Positions 1,697 through 28,869 of a stretch of 36,604 nt of DNA are shown piece by piece. How positions within the stretch are numbered: the stretch's first letter is position 1; each line of letters starts with the position of its first letter. Source of the stretch: a virus; IMG/VR virus record IMGVR_UViG_3300028883_000999, positions 1-36,604 of that record; one strand, written 5' to 3'. A program made the translations under genes and the position numbers. The notes beneath the pieces are model-generated. The model was not told the DNA's origin. It saw nothing but the letters and a program-made list of their open reading frames with translations, and made no database searches.

Positions 1697-2569
1697 TTAC
1701 TCACATTTTTCTTTATATATTTCAATTAAATTAAGTATTTGATCTGAACTAATACACCTTGCTAAACCAGCATTGTATTTTATATAATCAGAATGCTTTA
1801 AGGTCGTATCATATTCAGACAAATGACCTTGAACTATACCAATTAAATAGCTTCGACCTGTCTCCCGATCAATTTTAGTTATGACCGGGCTTCCGCTATT
1901 CCCTCCGAATGAGAAACCATCAATAAGAAACTCATTTGATCTTTCTGATTTCCAAGATAATAATCCTTTTCTCACCAATGGATTGGAGGCGATATCTGAA
2001 AATAATCTCGTTGTATCATATGCATATCCTATTTCTGTACCTATATGGAAGGGAAAACCAATAAAATAAACATCTGTCCCAACTTCGACTTGATTAAGTT
2101 TCAAAATTCCCGATCTGGGGATTGAAAGTCTTTCGACCGAAATTGAATCATTATTATCACTTAAAACAATATGTGATGGGATTTCCATTTTAAATACAGC
2201 AAGATCATAATTTCTACTAAATACAACTGTGCTATCAGGAATCAAATCAACTTTTCCTCTGATATTATTGTTAGTTACTTCCCAATTATCATCTTGAAGA
2301 ATTATTTTTTTATTAGATATCATTCCTTTAAGCGGTAAACTTACATATAGGGATTTATGTTTACCAATGATATGCTTATTAGTGACTATATATCTTAATG
2401 CTGAATTATAATCGTATAAGATAAAACCAGTGCCATGGGGTTGTATCTTACTTCCAACCTTCTTCTCGATTAAGACAACAGTCTTGACTATTGTATCATT
2501 GAAATCAGATAATTGAGCAGGAAGCGCAATCGGTATAATAATCAAAAATATAGATATAATCTTTTTCAT
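1697..2569 (-). CDS. Secreted trypsin-like (S1 family) serine protease
   Basis: 290 aa with a Sec signal peptide of about 18 residues ending ALPA, so Gln19 would be the mature N-terminus. A complete serine protease triad is visible: His66 in VTNKHIIG, Asp122 in NYDLAVFKM and Ser225 in GGNSGSPV. The chymotrypsin-fold layout resembles HtrA-type peptidases but no PDZ domain follows. It is the promoter-proximal gene of the AT-rich cargo operon with the 84-aa protein and PIN gene. A periplasmic or extracellular protease next to a cytoplasmic PIN protein is unusual; whether they work together is unknown. Confidence 0.8.
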   Translation of the reverse strand: MKKIISIFLIIIPIALPAQLSDFNDTIVKTVVLIEKKVGSKIQPHGTGFILYDYNSALRYIVTNKHIIGKHKSLYVSLPLKGMISNKKIILQDDNWEVTNNNIRGKVDLIPDSTVVFSRNYDLAVFKMEIPSHIVLSDNNDSISVERLSIPRSGILKLNQVEVGTDVYFIGFPFHIGTEIGYAYDTTRLFSDIASNPLVRKGLLSWKSERSNEFLIDGFSFGGNSGSPVITKIDRETGRSYLIGIVQGHLSEYDTTLKHSDYIKYNAGLARCISSDQILNLIEIYKEKCE

Positions 2570-4264: not shown

Positions 4265-4758
4265 AGCTCTTCAGCAGTTTCCGGTTGACCTTTCACAATC
4301 ACAAAGACCCGGTTTGGGGTGTGGATCCTGAAGCTCGTAGCCCTGGTCAGATGTGGTGTTCGGATCTCCAGGAACCGGCCCTCGGGAAACATCACCTCCC
4401 CCCTATAAAATATAGGTTGTGTGGCGGTGTCGTGGTTAAAAGCCAGGACATCTGGATTGACTATATCAGGGATGGCCTGGACATACATTGTATCCCCACG
4501 TCCTCTGCGTATTGTGAGGTTTCCAGCGGATTCGGGATCATACCATATTTCGCATTCCGGCGTGCCTTTCTCCGTCAGGATCCCGCATAGGATATTCAGC
4601 TTTTCAAGTTCATTCTCCCGGTCCACGATATAATGCATCGGGATATCATCCCGGTCTTCCAGAATATAGATATGATCACCGGTCTCGAAGCGGATCCGGT
4701 GCTGGCCGAAGAGTGCCAGGGGAAGAATACCCAACAAAATGATATATAAATATCTCAT
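4261..4758 (-). CDS. Secreted protein of unknown function
   Basis: 165 aa with a signal peptide of about 18 residues ending in ALFG, leaving Gln19 as mature N-terminus. The rest is mainly beta-type sequence with acidic loops (RFETGDHIYILEDRDDIP; RGEVMFPEGRFLEIRTP). No recognised domain. It starts inside the end of the sigma-like gene (4-base overlap) and precedes the lysis cassette. It could be a periplasmic lysis accessory (spanin-like position) but has no membrane anchor other than the signal peptide and no lipobox. Confidence 0.6.
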   Translation of the reverse strand: MRYLYIILLGILPLALFGQHRIRFETGDHIYILEDRDDIPMHYIVDRENELEKLNILCGILTEKGTPECEIWYDPESAGNLTIRRGRGDTMYVQAIPDIVNPDVLAFNHDTATQPIFYRGEVMFPEGRFLEIRTPHLTRATSFRIHTPNRVFVIVKGQPETAEEL

Positions 4759-5786
4759 GCCTCATAGAACTTTGGTAATTCATTCTCCCTGAAATTCTCC
4801 TTGATCAACCTGAGCACACCTTTTTGTAACACCTTGCCGGTTTTGCATGTAAGGCCATAGCAATATCTTTTGATGAATTGATCCTGCCTGATTACAACAG
4901 GCTTGCGAACAAATGATGCTGATCTGTTCTCATGATTTGGAGGGGATATCGCTCTTCCGTAATTGCTGATGCGGTATTCATACTTCCAGTCTCCGTTCAT
5001 GATTCTCCATCTTTCATCAGGGAAGGTGTGTTCGAGATCGAAGAAATGTCCTGACTCAAGCGCCCAGAGAAAAAGCCTTTGAGGCCATTCTCTTCTCAAA
5101 TTTTTCTTGGCCTGGCTGAAACTTGCATTCACGTTCTCCCTGGTGATCCCCATTGCCATGGCGATCTCTCCCTGGCTTTTACCATGGTAAAACCATTGCC
5201 TCACCATCTCGCGTCTCTGTTTCGGCAGGAGCTCGATCAGGCCTCTTAACAATTCCTCCCGGGCATCGGGATCCGTTTCGCGATATTCCTCCTCCCGGTC
5301 GGATATCTTCTTTTCGATCTGCCGGTCAACAATCTCATTCTCGCCCAGGCGGATCTTATTATATATAAGCAGACCCCGGATCCGGTCTTTAATGTGTGGC
5401 CAGACATTCATTTGAGCCAGAACTTCCTCTTCATCCAGTTCGTAATCCTTTTCCGTTTCCAGCCTTGCCTTTTCTTTCAGATAGCTCCTCAAATAAGAAA
5501 CATGATGGTATGGGATCCCGGTGGTTTTGTAGCGGAATTCGACCATGGCATTACGTATGTTGATTTTTACGAAACTTGAAAAGCCACCTCGTTCCAGGTC
5601 GGTTTTTCTTATTGCCTCCAAAACTGCGATACGGCCTTCCTGGACGAAATCATCATAAAAGGGATCCTGATGATTATGGAGATGCCTCCAGGCCTGGTAA
5701 GTAATCTCAGATTCAAAATGCTGAAGCACCTGGGTAACTGCGGATTTCTTTCCCTGCTTGGCGGCTATGATGACCTCATTACCCAT
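4755..5786 (-). CDS. Sigma-70-like factor with C-terminal NUMOD4-like domain
   Basis: 343 aa from the ATG at 5786, which overlaps the previous stop as TGATG; a GTG at 5804 is the alternative. Residues 45-85 match sigma region 2: DDFVQEGRIAVLEAIRKTD, then ERGGFSSFVKINIRNAM. Residues 178-232 match region 4: LIELLPKQRREMV, then the HTH KSQGEIAMAMGITRENVNAS. After this, residues about 257-343 contain ERWRIMNGDWKYEYRISNYG and Arg, the signature of NUMOD4 domains that usually accompany HNH homing endonucleases. No HNH nuclease is present. It probably directs RNA polymerase to phage promoters; the late motif is the obvious candidate target. The fusion is unusual. Confidence 0.75.
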   Translation of the reverse strand: MGNEVIIAAKQGKKSAVTQVLQHFESEITYQAWRHLHNHQDPFYDDFVQEGRIAVLEAIRKTDLERGGFSSFVKINIRNAMVEFRYKTTGIPYHHVSYLRSYLKEKARLETEKDYELDEEEVLAQMNVWPHIKDRIRGLLIYNKIRLGENEIVDRQIEKKISDREEEYRETDPDAREELLRGLIELLPKQRREMVRQWFYHGKSQGEIAMAMGITRENVNASFSQAKKNLRREWPQRLFLWALESGHFFDLEHTFPDERWRIMNGDWKYEYRISNYGRAISPPNHENRSASFVRKPVVIRQDQFIKRYCYGLTCKTGKVLQKGVLRLIKENFRENELPKFYEA

Positions 5787-7396
5787 CAGTTCACCTTTTT
5801 CCACTTCCCCCTTTCTATTCCGGCGCTGATGTAAACATCTTTAGCGCTTGTGTCGATGTAGATATCCCCGGCCTTCAGAGGGACTGGTAGGAGGGATGTA
5901 TCGCCGGCGGCACTATGTATGGATGGTGTGTGCAAATTCTCAAAATACCCGGTCTCCAGGGATCCGGAAAGTGTCATGCTGGTATTATCGATTACGATCT
6001 CATCAGATTCGGTGGCCAGGATCGTAGTGGTGGATTCGGAGTTGTTATGAGCTATGATCTCCAGGGCGGTATTCAGATCGAAAGATGATCGGTTTATCGG
6101 ACCGATCCTTACTCCCCCGACATTTCCCCTGAAAGCATTATGGCCCACGGGATATCCACTATGAACATGCATGATTGCGTATTCCGATGAATAGCCGAGA
6201 GCTATTGAGCCCGGGATCCTGGGAGATGGGTTTATCCCGCCATCTTTCCCTATTACGGCGATAACTTTATCACACCCGCAGCTGATTGAAGAGCCTAAAA
6301 AAAGATTCTCAAGACATCCGGTATTGCTATTCCAGCCTATCACCATAGAGTTCTGGCTGAAATTGGAATTACCATATCCGATTACAGAATTAAATTTTCC
6401 GGGTTCAAAATAATTGTCATACCCTATGTTGATGAGTGTGTCCTGTGCGTGTTTGAAGCTCTGAACAAAATCAAATTTTCGCGTAAACGGGTTTTTGATA
6501 ACCCTCTGTCCCCAGCTGCATGCAAAGACTGACAACAGTAATATGGCGAACACAAACAGCCTGCGTCTTTTCCTCACCGGCGCAACAAACAGAAGCAGTG
6601 GAATGAATCCATTCAATTTTACCCAGTCCCCCCGGGTGGATCCCACGGAGATATAGGTATCGCCGGCTGATGTATCGATGAACATATCACCGATCTTATC
6701 GGGAGTATTATAGTTCGATGTGTCGCCGGCCGCCTGGTGGATCGTTGGAACATGGGTGCAGACAACTGAATCCGCGATCAGGATCCCGGAGAGCTCGGCA
6801 TTCCCATCATAATCAAGTGTGAATACATCGCTTCCGTTCCAGTTCTTGCATTTCAGAAAATAGGAGTCCGGATCCGTGAGGTGTTTATTGATCTGAAGGG
6901 CAGTCAATGTGTCCAGATCCGGTCCTCCGATGCTTACCCCGCCGATATCCGTCGTGTAGGTCTCCCCGGGCTCATACCCGCTCTGAACGTACATGATGGG
7001 GACCGAAGAAAAATATCCCAGGCCGACAGATCCGTATCGGGAGTTTGTCATCCTCAATCCGGTGGTCAGCCCACGTCCGATCGTAATTGTGTGGGTGGTG
7101 TCTGCAGAAAGGAAGTATCCAAACAGCAGGTTATTCGATTTATTCACCGAGTTAAAGTAACCCAGGGCCATGGTCTCAGGGGCATTGACCAGGTTGCCGT
7201 GCCCGATCACACCATTCAGAGTATCTTCTGATAGGACATTATTTGTCCCGAAATTGATCACAGAATCATTTACCGGATTGTATTGAGAGTAATAATCATG
7301 AGACCGGATAAATGGATTCCAGAATTTTTTCTTTTCCTGCCCGTAAATAATGGATGGGATCAGAAGCAGGAAGAAAACAAGGTGCTTCAGCTTCAT
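5786..7396 (-). CDS. Exported fibre-like protein, two fused tandem copies
   Basis: 536 aa made of two homologous halves. Half one (1-262) begins with a signal peptide ending IIYG before Gln20; half two begins near residue 274 with a second signal-peptide-like segment, RKRRRLFVFAILLLSVFACS then WGQ. Both contain YadA-head-like repeats (NGVIGHGN / NSVIGYGN; ETMALGYFNSV / NSMVIGWNSN) and end alike (AGDTYISVGSTRGDWVKLN versus a form ending RGKWKKVN). The first copy has lost its stop, so a short linker GFIPLLLFVAP joins them. An internal GTG at 6577 could still start copy two alone. Repeats of this type form trimeric fibre heads. ATGA overlap with the gene at 7393. Confidence 0.7.
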   Translation of the reverse strand: MKLKHLVFFLLLIPSIIYGQEKKKFWNPFIRSHDYYSQYNPVNDSVINFGTNNVLSEDTLNGVIGHGNLVNAPETMALGYFNSVNKSNNLLFGYFLSADTTHTITIGRGLTTGLRMTNSRYGSVGLGYFSSVPIMYVQSGYEPGETYTTDIGGVSIGGPDLDTLTALQINKHLTDPDSYFLKCKNWNGSDVFTLDYDGNAELSGILIADSVVCTHVPTIHQAAGDTSNYNTPDKIGDMFIDTSAGDTYISVGSTRGDWVKLNGFIPLLLFVAPVRKRRRLFVFAILLLSVFACSWGQRVIKNPFTRKFDFVQSFKHAQDTLINIGYDNYFEPGKFNSVIGYGNSNFSQNSMVIGWNSNTGCLENLFLGSSISCGCDKVIAVIGKDGGINPSPRIPGSIALGYSSEYAIMHVHSGYPVGHNAFRGNVGGVRIGPINRSSFDLNTALEIIAHNNSESTTTILATESDEIVIDNTSMTLSGSLETGYFENLHTPSIHSAAGDTSLLPVPLKAGDIYIDTSAKDVYISAGIERGKWKKVN

Positions 7397-24032: not shown

Positions 24033-24728
24033 TTACTTTTTCTCTGCGCTCTGGGTAGTATCCGGGAACTTGTCATCCAGGTATTCCTTCAGCTCGGCAT
24101 CGGTGGCGGCACCACCCTGGCTCTCCTCGGCCTCTTTCACGGATTCATTCACATGCTCCTGTTTGAGTTCGAGGTACTCTGCTTCCAGAGCCTTCACCTG
24201 GTCTTCGAGTGATGCTTCTTGATCATCCACATCAATCCGCTTGATCCACTTGTCCTTCAGCTTGTCAGGGATCTTCGAAGCCTTAAGCAGATCCTTTGCC
24301 TGGTTGAGCTTTGTAGCTCGTTCCTTTTCCTTTTCCTGTTTCGTCAACCGTTTCTCGTAAGAATCCAGTTTTTCCGTGAGGGATTTTGCCCATGCAGGTA
24401 CATCCTCGCCCCCCTCACCCCCTTTTAACTTGGAGGTATCGAGATCCGATTTCTTCTGCCCGGGATCCTCAACAGGTTTCCCGTCTTTTAGCTTGTGCTT
24501 GGATTCATAGTCAGCTACGGCTTTTTTCGAGGCGCTTTTGGCCTCCTGTGATGCGCGATAGTCTGACTCCGACTCGATGATTGTGTCAATGGTCACCCCA
24601 TCAACGATGGATTGAATCTTACTTTCATCGGTGACAGTCCCGGCTTTTTTAGTTGCGATCCTGTCTAGCGTAGCTTCCTTAACCCCTTCAAATTTGGATT
24701 TAAGGGCAGCTAAAAGTTTTTCCTTCAT
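24033..24728 (-). CDS. Scaffolding protein
   Basis: 231 aa, very rich in Lys, Glu and Asp, with a long coiled-coil-like middle (LTEKLDSYEKRLTKQEKEKE) and flexible acidic linker (LKGGEGGEDVPAW). No enzyme motif. This composition and the position before decoration and capsid genes are typical of capsid scaffolds. A near copy of the late motif precedes the start by 11 bases. Confidence 0.75.
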   Translation of the reverse strand: MKEKLLAALKSKFEGVKEATLDRIATKKAGTVTDESKIQSIVDGVTIDTIIESESDYRASQEAKSASKKAVADYESKHKLKDGKPVEDPGQKKSDLDTSKLKGGEGGEDVPAWAKSLTEKLDSYEKRLTKQEKEKERATKLNQAKDLLKASKIPDKLKDKWIKRIDVDDQEASLEDQVKALEAEYLELKQEHVNESVKEAEESQGGAATDAELKEYLDDKFPDTTQSAEKK

Positions 24729-24811: not shown

Positions 24812-25063
24812 ATGAAAAACAAAGATTTGGCATTTGCCTTCGTCGGATTTGTGTTAGGTTTAGTCATTACACTGGCATTAGTCGTTTCGGTTGGTCTATT
24901 CACACCAAAATACAGTGTGGTAGGTGCCGAAACTCTTGGAAGTGATTATCTCTACGTGGTTCTAAATACTAGGACAGGAGAGCTCAGCGCAATCACAATG
25001 GATCATTCAGGATTCAAACATCACAAATCCAATAGTCGTATAAAAGCCTTCAACGAAGAATGA
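24812..25063 (+). CDS. Plus-strand small membrane protein (moron-like)
   Basis: 83 aa. One membrane helix, residues about 7-31 (AFAFVGFVLGLVITLALVVS), with a short cytoplasmic N-terminus and a soluble tail of about 50 residues (ETLGSDYLYVVLNTRTGELS). It is the only convincing phage gene on the plus strand, set between minus-strand head genes. Such reversed single genes often belong to the lysogenic programme, for example superinfection exclusion or host-surface change. No family recognised. Upstream is AT-rich without a clear -33/-7 pair. Confidence 0.6.
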   Translation: MKNKDLAFAFVGFVLGLVITLALVVSVGLFTPKYSVVGAETLGSDYLYVVLNTRTGELSAITMDHSGFKHHKSNSRIKAFNEE

Positions 25064-25075
25064 GAATTATCTGGC

Positions 25076-25285
25076 TTAGATGAGAATAATATTACCCTCT
25101 TTGTCGGGTTTGCCGTAATCCGGGTGGGAGGTGAAGAGAAATTCACCGATGAGTGTCTCATCTATCGGTCCATGGCAGATAAAATCCTTATAATGGCCGA
25201 ATAGCTCCAGCCTCTCTTCCTCGGTAATAGTACCATGGAAGAACTTATCATGAAGCTTATTCATATGTTCGTCTATCTGAGCCAT
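25076..25285 (-). CDS. Small acidic phage protein (69 aa)
   Basis: 69 aa, starting MAQIDEHMNKLHDKFFHGTI. The segment GTITEEERLELFGHYKDFIC looks helical. Starts inside the end of the MuF-like gene (13-base overlap) and may be co-translated with it. If that C-terminal metallopeptidase-like domain is toxic, this could be its immunity protein by position; nothing in the sequence proves it. Confidence 0.5.
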   Translation of the reverse strand: MAQIDEHMNKLHDKFFHGTITEEERLELFGHYKDFICHGPIDETLIGEFLFTSHPDYGKPDKEGNIILI

Positions 25286-27018
25286 CCTAAGTTTTTGAAG
25301 ATCTTATCAATTTCCTCCAACAAAGGTACGAAATCATCTGTATCCCAAAGTGATGGGAGAACACTTTTTTCTCTCAACTTCTTAACCTGGCGAAGCAGCT
25401 TTGTATCTCCTGACTTGGTCGCAATGTACTGGGAATAAGCTCTTGCCCAGACTTCCTGATCTTGCAGCAAATACATCAGACGTTCAATGAGCGCCCAGTT
25501 CAGATTCAATCGCTTGCCATCGACTATCATATATCCCTGGGTAATCATTTTATTTATCTCCTGAATTGGCTTACTCTTGTGCGCCAAAGTGATGAAGTTC
25601 TTGAAGATGCTGCCGGACAGAGTCTCAAAATCATTCGGGGATCCAATCCCGCAATGATCCAGGAAATGTCCTGTTTCATGGACCACGGTGAGATCCTTCC
25701 ATGGACCACTGTAGCTGATTGCTATTCTTGATGCCTTTTTACCATGTACAGTCGGGACGGCCTCATAAAAACCAGCAGTTTTTTTGTTTCCGAATGACAT
25801 GATCGGGATCCTGGGTAGCTTCCCATCACCATGGACCATGTTGATCGCATGCATGGCATGACTGACCTGACTTTTAACCCTGCTGTCTATGTAATTGAAT
25901 GCTTCGGCTACATTGGGGACCTGCTGCCGCAATGAGACCATTGCTCCAGGCTGCAGCATCCCCAGGCCGGGCCGGGGAGTGAATTCTCCATTCTTCAGGA
26001 CGAAATTATCCTTCAACCAGTATGGTGTATTGGTCCAGTTTCTGAACTGGCCGCTATGGCTTTTAACGAACTGATTTGCACCGGCAGGAATCCCTTTTAT
26101 CTTGAGACTGCCCGGCACCTTACCGGTCTCCAGGTATTGGGCGAACTGGTCCTGCTTCATCATTATCGGGACCGTATAGCAGTAACAGTTCGGGTGCCAG
26201 CCACCAAAAACAAAGGATTTCGGATACTCGCCGGCCATGAAATCGCATATGTCCTCAACCGGATGGGAGGCGGAGAGCTTCACCTCATAGCCGGTCACAA
26301 AGTCAAGTTTCTGCCATCTGACCTGGTCACTCATCCGATAGGCCATGTTGGTCTCCGTGCGGGTCATCCGGAGGCTGTTCTGGTAAGCGGACCGGTACAC
26401 TCCCTGGCCGGGGTGATAGCTGGCCATGGGTCGGCTGGGCTTTAGCTTGCCGGTCTCGGGATCCCGGATCCTCCGGAACCGTGCATCGGGATTATTGAGC
26501 AACTGTCGCACGTCCCGGGACATCTGAGCCGCGCTCCGGCCGGTGCCCACACCGCTCTGCAGGTAGAATTCAATGTTTTCCTTGGTCTGATCACAGATCT
26601 TCCATACCCTCTCCGAAAGGTTCATTGTTCCGATGCGGCGGCTCTGAAATGCTTTTAGAGCCTCAAGATCCCGGGTGAACAATCCCTGCCTTACCAGGTC
26701 GCTGACCGCCATCTTGCTGATATAGTCCTGGACCAGGAGATCTGTTTTATCGGCTGCCAGGTGCCAGGCCTTTTCAATATTGACAGTGAGATACGAATAA
26801 AGCTTTTCTTGGAGCTGGGCCAGGTTCTTATCCAGAGCCGCCTCGATGGACCTGTTACGGTACCAGAGTGTTTTTTTTCTGGTCTGATGGTACTTGGTCA
26901 GGGCAGGGGAGGAGGAACCGATAAATTCATTAAAGATCCGTGTGATCCCGGACTCCTGCATCAGGATCATTCGCATGAGCTTCCGCTCCCAGATTCTTGG
27001 ATCCCATTGTTCCGGCAT
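25273..27018 (-). CDS. MuF-like minor head protein with C-terminal zincin domain
   Basis: 581 aa. Residues 215-285 show the SPP1 gp7 / Mu gpF signature: NSLRMTRTETNMAYRM, then DICDFMAGEYP and the Cys/His turn GGWHPNCYCYTVP. After a ~100-residue linker, residues 447-451 read HETGH, a zinc-binding HExxH site, in VVHETGHFLDHCG. A likely third ligand is Glu522 in QEVWARAYSQYI, like the EVFARAF segment of other phage and polymorphic-toxin zincins. Thus the protein carries a metallopeptidase-like domain into the capsid, where it could be injected or act in maturation. Fusions of effectors to MuF domains are known in Gram-positive prophages. Confidence 0.8.
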   Translation of the reverse strand: MPEQWDPRIWERKLMRMILMQESGITRIFNEFIGSSSPALTKYHQTRKKTLWYRNRSIEAALDKNLAQLQEKLYSYLTVNIEKAWHLAADKTDLLVQDYISKMAVSDLVRQGLFTRDLEALKAFQSRRIGTMNLSERVWKICDQTKENIEFYLQSGVGTGRSAAQMSRDVRQLLNNPDARFRRIRDPETGKLKPSRPMASYHPGQGVYRSAYQNSLRMTRTETNMAYRMSDQVRWQKLDFVTGYEVKLSASHPVEDICDFMAGEYPKSFVFGGWHPNCYCYTVPIMMKQDQFAQYLETGKVPGSLKIKGIPAGANQFVKSHSGQFRNWTNTPYWLKDNFVLKNGEFTPRPGLGMLQPGAMVSLRQQVPNVAEAFNYIDSRVKSQVSHAMHAINMVHGDGKLPRIPIMSFGNKKTAGFYEAVPTVHGKKASRIAISYSGPWKDLTVVHETGHFLDHCGIGSPNDFETLSGSIFKNFITLAHKSKPIQEINKMITQGYMIVDGKRLNLNWALIERLMYLLQDQEVWARAYSQYIATKSGDTKLLRQVKKLREKSVLPSLWDTDDFVPLLEEIDKIFKNLGWLR

Positions 27019-27444: not shown

Positions 27445-28869
27445 TTACATGTTGAATGATACGTTGGGTGATGCTCTAGCAGCCTCAGCTTTGAGGCGTT
27501 CAACCTCTTCTCCGGCATCCCGGGTAAATGGGGACAGAGAGGCCCCGGACTCCTGGGAGAGGATGGGCTTGTTGCCCGTGGCGACCATCAGGGTATCAAC
27601 AGTCTCAGCCAGGTCATCGGGCAGCTGGCCATCGAAGGTGACACTGATCTCGTCACTGTCCAGCTGGCCCTCCATCTTCACATTGGTATATCCGGTAATA
27701 CCAGCCACCACGACAGAGATACAGCGGTTAAGGGCATCGTAGAAAATCTCTCCCTTCTCCTCTTTTTTGATCAGCGCATCCATGAACATCAGGCGAAGGG
27801 CCACCCCGGAGGTGGTGCCAAGGCCTTTCACGTTGTTGAACGAGAGATCCGGAGTAGAGGTCATTGCGAATATCCCTTCCCAAGTTGTCTCCAGGTCCAA
27901 CTTGATAGCCTCCGGCATGGCATCCCAGGTGGCATACTCGGCATCCCCATGAGAAACCTTACCTTCGGTATCGATTTTCATTGGGAATTCAACCGTCTTG
28001 CCAACCTCTTCCTTGTTGGGTGCGCGCGTCACCTCACCGAAGATCTTTAGCAGGGGCTCGGCGAAGTAGTCGTTCGTATCTGCCAGGCGGGAGATGCGGT
28101 TTTCAAAGTTGTCGATCAGACTGGCCACTTCTTCCCACTCGGGGAGGTCCTGCTCAACATAAACTACCGGTATCTTGCCGAACAGGTTCTTTTCTGATTT
28201 CTCATGCTCCCAGGATCCGGATTCGCTTTTGAGTGATAGGATCTGATCAGCTGTGTATATCCTCGCCTTATGTACCGCCTTCCCTTCATTGTCTGTCACA
28301 TCATATGTTCGCAAAAAAGCATCCATATCACCATAATCATCGAAGTGCGGGTAGAACTCTCCGCTTTCGTTATCCAGGAGCATGCAGCGCAGCTTGAGCC
28401 GCTTGCCCGATCCATCGACAACAGGCTGGGGATAGAACAACAGGGCCGCCTTTGTTTCGATCATGCATGCACGGGCCAGTCTCTTGAGCATATTCTGCAT
28501 CTTCAGCCCCTTGGTCCACACATCGACAAACTCTTGGAAAGCATTGCTATCCTCCTCAGCCGACACATGCATCTCCCCGCCGAAAAGGAAATGTGCTCCC
28601 GTACGCACGAGCTTCTTCGGGAAGGGGAAGATGAGCTTGGAAACGTAAACGGTTTTCTCCTCTCTGGTGGGTGTGCCGTCTTCCTTCAGCACTTTGTAGG
28701 TTTTGTTCTGCCGTCTACCCACCGATTTGATCCGGCGGGTGCGCTCGCCTTCAAACTCCTCGCGGTACTCTTCCTGTTTGCGCTCATCACGAGTATCCAC
28801 GCTGAGAGAGGAAATCAGCTTTTGAGGATTGTCAGCATGTTGGTTAAGGATCTCTTTTATGGAAGGCAT
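27445..28869 (-). CDS. Portal protein, SPP1 gp6-like
   Basis: 474 aa. Characteristic portal features: LIFPFPKKLVRTGAHFLFGG early, a middle FGKIPVVYVEQDLPEW, the wing-type helix WEEVASLIDNFENRISRLAD, and the GLGTTSGVALRLMFMDA turn that matches the SPP1 gp6 family. It forms the 12-mer ring that terminase docks on. It starts a unit behind a near late motif, and lies between large terminase and the minor head genes as expected. Confidence 0.85.
   Translation of the reverse strand: MPSIKEILNQHADNPQKLISSLSVDTRDERKQEEYREEFEGERTRRIKSVGRRQNKTYKVLKEDGTPTREEKTVYVSKLIFPFPKKLVRTGAHFLFGGEMHVSAEEDSNAFQEFVDVWTKGLKMQNMLKRLARACMIETKAALLFYPQPVVDGSGKRLKLRCMLLDNESGEFYPHFDDYGDMDAFLRTYDVTDNEGKAVHKARIYTADQILSLKSESGSWEHEKSEKNLFGKIPVVYVEQDLPEWEEVASLIDNFENRISRLADTNDYFAEPLLKIFGEVTRAPNKEEVGKTVEFPMKIDTEGKVSHGDAEYATWDAMPEAIKLDLETTWEGIFAMTSTPDLSFNNVKGLGTTSGVALRLMFMDALIKKEEKGEIFYDALNRCISVVVAGITGYTNVKMEGQLDSDEISVTFDGQLPDDLAETVDTLMVATGNKPILSQESGASLSPFTRDAGEEVERLKAEAARASPNVSFNM

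What the first reader, a model, noticed from the sequence alone, without database searches (positions are those of the whole stretch)
25273..27018. MuF-like minor head protein with an HETGH zincin domain: possible packaged effector
The N-terminal ~285 residues are a MuF-type capsid protein. After a linker, VVHETGHFLDH gives an HExxH zinc site and QEVWARAYSQYI a candidate third ligand. Such an enzyme could be delivered with the DNA into the next host, or process capsid proteins. A small acidic gene overlaps its 3' end, in the place an immunity protein would take.
Basis: partly seen in the sequence, partly recalled or inferred. Interest (0 to 1): 0.7.

Follow-up and report, generated by a model that had tools for sequence, protein, structure and literature searches.

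The report
Phage capsid protein carrying protease cargo
A bacterial virus builds a zinc-protease domain into one of its inner head proteins, with a tiny partner gene overlapping its end that probably keeps it silent; the pair recurs in phages and prophages across many bacterial phyla, and it most likely works as a weapon or tool injected with the viral DNA, although nothing has been tested at the bench.

Summary
Window 25273-27018 (-) encodes 581 aa: a MuF-type head protein (residues 1 to about 345), a linker, and a C-terminal zincin (about 366-581). The zincin model is very confident (pLDDT 95.7, pTM 0.92). Its closest solved folds are the lethal-factor catalytic domain and PPEP-1. HETGH (447-451) and the third-ligand candidate E522 are kept in 66 of 68 homologous loci; the two exceptions are broken genes. 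The same zincin recurs in phages and prophages of about 11 bacterial phyla, on MuF N-termini that are mostly not alignable with each other. A small acidic ORF overlaps its 3' end in 49 of 59 unique genes, against 5 of 40 short MuF genes. Half of the close MuF relatives lack any C-terminal domain; others carry ARTs, a Zeta toxin or other zincins. Two phages 99.4% identical elsewhere differ by one cassette: zincin plus most of the neighbour gene. This is the signature of a MuF polymorphic effector with an inhibitor partner, and argues against a capsid-assembly protease. MuF metallopeptidase toxins are known (Jamet 2017); this zincin-partner family was not found described. Packaging, injection, toxicity and inhibition are inferred.

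The parts
25273..27018 (-). 581-aa MuF-zincin fusion gene
   Evidence: lies in the packaging/head module after the portal gene and a 164-aa ORF
25984..27018 (-). MuF-type minor head protein domain, residues 1 to about 345
   Evidence: phrog_35295 E 2e-75, phrog_1657 E 2.5e-27; alignment A1 of 14 relatives with conserved Cys/His cluster
25273..25923 (-). zincin domain, residues 366-581
   Evidence: AlphaFold2 pLDDT 95.7, pTM 0.92; lethal-factor catalytic domain Z 10.0, PPEP-1 Z 8.9
25666..25680 (-). HETGH zinc-binding motif, residues 447-451
   Evidence: invariant HExGH in 23 aligned homologues; kept in 66 of 68 loci
25453..25455 (-). E522, third-ligand candidate, start of the EVWARAY helix
   Evidence: invariant E-x-[FW]-A-R-x-Y
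25076..25285 (-). 69-aa acidic partner gene, candidate inhibitor/immunity protein, overlapping the MuF-zincin gene by 13 nt
   Evidence: conserved in L097 at 58%; predicted three helices plus low-confidence tail, pLDDT 79.8; position conserved family-wide
27445..28869 (-). portal gene, upstream (context)
   Evidence: PF05133 E 8e-49
24033..24728 (-). probable scaffold gene, downstream (context); where similarity to relatives resumes after the cassette
   Evidence: phrog_5824 E 6e-39 and weak scaffold hit phrog_172; DNA comparison

Best explanation
The gene is a MuF polymorphic effector. The MuF part places the protein in the phage head near the portal. The C-terminal zincin is an ATLF/PPEP-like protease carried as cargo and released with the DNA into the next cell, where it cleaves a host protein. 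In the producing cell the overlapping, probably translationally coupled 69-aa acidic protein binds and silences the protease until it is packaged, and so acts as its immunity protein. Shown here: domain architecture, high-confidence zincin fold, conserved catalytic residues, modular exchange of the domain, and a zincin-specific overlapping small gene. Inferred: packaging, injection, catalysis, the target, and inhibition by the partner.
For: Zincin fold at pLDDT 95.7, nearest solved folds lethal-factor catalytic domain Z 10.0 and PPEP-1 Z 8.9. Catalytic HExGH + E in 66/68 loci. Same zincin in 29 viral contigs and 39 genome loci from about 11 phyla, almost always fused to MuF-type head proteins; zincins are alignable in 99.3% of pairs but N-termini in only 16.7%. 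Close MuF relatives: 40 of 78 end after the MuF domain, 38 carry varied C-termini, among them a Zeta toxin, E 3e-22, and an ART. L005/L006: 99.4% DNA identity over 4.6 kb, breaking in the linker at codon ~366 and resuming inside the 3' third of the neighbour gene; first 366 aa identical at 364, neighbours 56% identical. Partner ORF in 49/59 zincin genes versus 5/40 short MuF genes, Fisher p 1e-12; a partner HMM seeded with 8 sequences finds further members among 6600 ORFs essentially only at zincin 3' ends. Precedent: MuF toxins with metallopeptidase domains and small downstream ORFs (PMC5576092), and Bxa, a MuF-ART with two proven immunity proteins (PMC11699363), whose family matches the window N-terminus (phrog_16625 E 1.5e-58).
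Against: No experiment on this family was found. The 69-aa protein is in the late operon, so it would not obviously protect a lysogen, unlike the opposite-strand genes beside Bxa-type MuF-ARTs. The window fragment shows no integrase, whereas MuF toxins were reported from temperate phages. Homology of the window partner to the large partner family is only suggestive (hhalign probability 5%, P 0.008; shuffles p 0.18).
Confidence: 0.6

Rival explanations
1. Helper of infection rather than weapon: the injected protease removes a host defence or regulatory protein to favour the phage (Alt-like), and the partner only prevents premature activity in the producing cell. This shares delivery and enzyme with the best explanation and differs in purpose.
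For: Same data as the best explanation; a related MuF-zincin with another small partner sits in Flavobacterium phage lotta8-2, described among lytic isolates (PMC7077304), where killing of competitors is a less obvious benefit.
Against: Cassette exchange between near-identical phages looks more like diversifying toxin-immunity specificity, though anti-defence genes also turn over fast.
Confidence: 0.2
2. Self-processing domain: the zincin cleaves its own linker to MuF, before packaging or after injection, as proposed for metallopeptidase domains of polyvalent phage proteins such as P1 DdrB.
For: Such a role is proposed for zincins of phage polyvalent proteins (PMC5512222); there is a linker of variable length between MuF and zincin.
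Against: Only two domains, so no other cargo to set free; stand-alone chromosomal zincin-partner pairs exist without MuF (L146, L147, L155), which self-release from MuF does not explain.
Confidence: 0.12
3. Capsid maturation protease: the zincin cleaves scaffold or head proteins during assembly.
For: The gene lies in the head module next to a scaffold-like gene; related MuF proteins are often annotated 'capsid maturation protease'.
Against: 40 of 78 close MuF relatives have no C-terminal domain; L003, 63% identical in MuF, lacks both zincin and partner but keeps portal- and scaffold-side homology; other relatives carry unrelated domains instead.
Confidence: 0.06

Closest known systems
MuF polymorphic toxins (Jamet et al. 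2017, PMC5576092)
   Same: MuF N-terminus encoded close after the portal, exchangeable C-terminal enzyme, small ORF downstream; 20% of their 191 putative toxins had a metallopeptidase domain
   Different: That set was associated with Firmicutes and temperate phages; this zincin has no accepted Pfam model and is widespread in other phyla; its overlapping partner family was not found described
Bxa of Bacteroides prophages (Alexei et al. 2024, PMC11699363)
   Same: Homologous MuF N-terminus (phrog_16625) and adjacent small candidate immunity gene
   Different: Bxa carries an ADP-ribosyltransferase with BAH/Bsi immunity; the relatives listed there were ARTs, glutamine deaminases and alarmone synthetases, no zincin
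ATLF / PPEP-1 zincins (lethal-factor catalytic domain, Clostridioides Zmp1)
   Same: Fold (Z 10.0 and 8.9), HExxH plus downstream Glu on the next conserved helix
   Different: About 13-15% identity, no Pfam ATLF hit for the window, different delivery (phage head), likely bacterial target
Metallopeptidase (MPTase) domains of phage polyvalent proteins and P1 DdrB (Iyer et al. 2017, PMC5512222)
   Same: Phage-carried zincin, HExxH with Asp three residues on, lethal-factor-like
   Different: Large multi-domain proteins with proposed autoprocessing role; here one MuF plus one terminal zincin with a coupled small gene

Membership tests
MuF polymorphic toxin | N-terminal MuF/SPP1-gp7-type head domain | tested here: met
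   phrog_1657 E 2.5e-27, phrog_35295 E 2e-75; Pfam PF04233 not detected, TIGR01641 below cut-off
MuF polymorphic toxin | gene shortly downstream of the portal gene | tested here: met
   portal 27445-28869, one 164-aa ORF between
MuF polymorphic toxin | exchangeable C-terminal enzymatic domain | tested here: met
   zincin model; varied C-termini and cassette swap
MuF polymorphic toxin | small ORF (<150 aa) immediately downstream | tested here: met
   69-aa ORF, family-wide 49/59
MuF polymorphic toxin | temperate phage or prophage | tested here: inconclusive
   window is a linear fragment without a detected integrase; a relative with the same architecture lies in a Chitinophagaceae chromosome
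MuF polymorphic toxin | toxic activity neutralised by cognate immunity protein | not testable with these tools
   needs expression experiments
zincin metallopeptidase (clan MA) | HExxH helix plus third ligand on a following helix in a zincin fold | tested here: met
   zinc geometry itself not measured
Pfam ATLF (PF07737) | score at or above the curated cut-off | tested here: not met
   window has no hit at E <= 1; 3 of 23 family members hit, best E 1.2e-4
Pfam ATLF (PF07737) | lethal-factor catalytic-domain fold | tested here: met
   Z 10.0, rmsd 3.5 over 148 residues
Bxa-type MuF ADP-ribosyltransferase | C-terminal ART domain | tested here: not met
   zincin instead
Self-processing polyvalent MPTase | cleavage of its own polypeptide | not testable with these tools
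   needs protein expression or virion proteomics

The most novel reading that the evidence does not exclude
An undescribed, phylum-crossing protease-inhibitor module: an ATLF/PPEP-fold zincin with a translationally coupled small acidic inhibitor, carried as head cargo by phages of many bacterial phyla, where the small protein acts as an inhibitor in trans that is left behind when the protease is packaged, so that the enzyme first becomes active in the next cell.
Probability: 0.35. Interest if true: 0.7.

Novelty: new variant of a known kind. Interest (0 to 1): 0.5.

Why it matters
It gives the loosely annotated 'MuF with metallopeptidase' class a defined domain with a confident structure, a catalytic signature and a specific candidate inhibitor. 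Cultured carriers (Akkermansia phages Chantilly and Chambord with the same zincin) make it testable whether phages inject proteases into their hosts. The L005/L006 pair is a natural cassette exchange that separates head function from cargo function.

Tried and rejected
Pfam, NCBIfam and PADLOC gave no accepted family for the window zincin or the 69-aa ORF. Plasmids: no match. A viral-contig scan with the 69-aa protein found no relatives, and one with the single zincin sequence found none; the alignment query A2 did. The first composition-controlled partner test returned no scores for a technical reason and was repeated. The link of the window partner to the large partner family was tested by profile comparison and shuffles and stays unproven. 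Virion proteomics for the related Flavobacterium phage was sought in its paper and not found. Capsid-maturation role considered and rejected as main explanation. The HTH_45 and LPD1 hits on the window protein are below cut-off; LPD1 overlaps the E-x-W-A-R-A-Y helix and probably reflects it. A single-linkage clustering of N-termini was uninformative and was replaced by pair counts.

Full report
What is there. The 581-aa ORF at 25273-27018 (-) is real and lies in a siphophage head module: terminase genes, portal, a 164-aa ORF, this gene, a 69-aa ORF, a scaffold-like gene, a probable decoration-type gene and the major capsid protein. The record is a 36.6-kb linear virus fragment. Residues 1 to about 345 are a MuF-type minor head domain; relatives are in phages of Bacteroides, Porphyromonas and Riemerella, and the protein also matches the PHROG that holds Bxa. 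Residues 431-581 match the C-terminus of another minor head protein PHROG.

The C-terminal domain. An alignment of 23 homologues gave an AlphaFold2 model of window residues 366-581 with pLDDT 95.7 and pTM 0.92. The structural second look ranks the catalytic domain of anthrax lethal factor (Z 10.0, 3.5 A over 148 residues) and then PPEP-1/Zmp1 (Z 8.9) above all other zincins; Foldseek alone gave only marginal E-values against the PDB, and its best viral matches were phage head-morphogenesis proteins. HExGH and E-x-[FW]-A-R-x-Y are invariant in the alignment. Of 68 loci, 66 keep both; the other two are a frameshifted and a truncated gene. No Pfam model accepts the domain; ATLF hits 3 of 23 members weakly.

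Distribution and modularity. The domain occurs in 29 viral contigs and 39 loci of bacterial genomes from Pseudomonadota, Acidobacteriota, Verrucomicrobiota, Bacteroidota, Deinococcota, Planctomycetota, Calditrichota, Chloroflexota, Armatimonadota, Actinomycetota and Spirochaetota by record title. Ten sampled proteins from different groups all have head-morphogenesis, portal or minor-head PHROG matches in their N-terminal parts. Zincins match each other in 99.3% of pairs, N-termini in 16.7%. A Chitinophagaceae chromosome holds the full MuF-zincin architecture (34% identity over residues 10-580) between portal and scaffold-like genes, as expected of a prophage. Three loci (L146, L147, L155) have stand-alone zincins beside what look like ordinary chromosomal genes.

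Exchange of the cargo. Of 78 unique intact close MuF relatives 40 end after the MuF domain and 38 are extended; eight of these carry the same or other HExxH domains, others a Zeta toxin or an ART. L003, the nearest MuF relative by identity (63%), has neither zincin nor partner. L005 and L006 are 99.4% identical over 4.6 kb; identity stops in the linker after the MuF domain and resumes (91%) inside the last third of the following 55-aa gene. Between these points lie two different zincins and diverged versions (56%) of one Cys-containing small protein. The same small-protein family follows the zincins of L083 and Flavobacterium phage lotta8-2.

The partner. In the window's own zincin family 58 of 64 genes have a small ORF within -45 to +30 nt of the stop, 27 of them at exactly -12. 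With stricter limits it is 49 of 59 unique genes, against 5 of 40 short MuF genes and 5.6% of random positions. Partners are acidic, median net charge -8. An HMM seeded with eight partners recovered, among 6600 ORFs of all loci, members that lie essentially all at zincin 3' ends. The Akkermansia phages, which seemed to lack a partner, have an acidic ORF overlapping by about 75 nt (weak). The window's 69-aa protein and its L097 homologue form a divergent branch; their link to the main partner family is suggestive only. The model of the 69-aa protein shows three helices and a low-confidence tail.

Mechanism. The pattern - constant delivery domain, exchangeable enzymatic tip, coupled small acidic gene found with the enzyme and not with the bare delivery domain - is that of polymorphic toxins. 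MuF proteins with metallopeptidase domains and small downstream ORFs were described in 2017 (PMC5576092), and one MuF effector, Bxa, has proven toxicity and immunity proteins (PMC11699363). The best reading is a packaged, injected protease with an inhibitor that protects the producing cell. Because the 69-aa gene is in the late transcript by position, it probably guards the enzyme during assembly; whether it also protects lysogens is open. Whether the protease serves competition, the lysis-lysogeny choice or anti-defence cannot be decided from sequence. Self-processing (proposed for polyvalent-protein zincins, PMC5512222) remains possible; capsid maturation is unlikely.

Novelty. The kind of system is known. 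The zincin family with its overlapping partner was not found in the papers searched, a search limited to open-licence full texts. It is filed as a new variant of MuF polymorphic effectors.

Noticed in passing
L025:1369-3498 and L106:2063-4603: Intein-like insertions interrupt two MuF proteins at the conserved Cys/His cluster (before CYCY / CRC); the second is a MuF-zincin.
   Followed up: no
L035:1362-3209 and the following 57-aa ORF: MuF protein with a C-terminal Zeta toxin (PF06414 E 3e-22) and a small overlapping ORF in the immunity position, weakly like DUF413.
   Followed up: partly
L013:4872-5654 and L015:5766-6539: ADP-ribosylglycohydrolase genes on the opposite strand beside extended MuF genes of Porphyromonas and Bacteroides phages, as in the Bxa/BAH pair.
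   Followed up: partly
L005, L006, L083, L165 downstream of the MuF-zincin genes: A second partner family of 55-67 aa with a CxxC..C pattern and conserved H..P tail follows different zincins; no Pfam family.
   Followed up: partly
L136:4635-4808 and 4818-4994 (-): Two tandem paralogous small acidic ORFs on the opposite strand right after a MuF-zincin gene in a Chitinophagaceae chromosome; possible lysogeny-expressed immunity genes, homology to the partners only suggestive.
   Followed up: partly
L146, L147, L155: Stand-alone zincin plus small partner pairs in Armatimonadota and Deinococcales chromosomes without a MuF domain.
   Followed up: partly
window 24812-25063 (+): 83-aa ORF with a probable N-terminal membrane helix, opposite strand, between partner and scaffold; the corresponding gap in L002 is about 50 bp, so it is absent there. 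Low GC (0.40).
   Followed up: partly
window 4755-5804 (-): Sigma-70-like factor (regions 2 and 4) encoded after the tail genes.
   Followed up: no
window 1697-2569 (-): Trypsin-like peptidase (PF13365 E 9e-10) of unknown role.
   Followed up: no
L009, L041, L047: MuF proteins with GNAT-acetyltransferase-like C-termini; L041 only weakly matches Acetyltransf_10 (E 0.0045).
   Followed up: no
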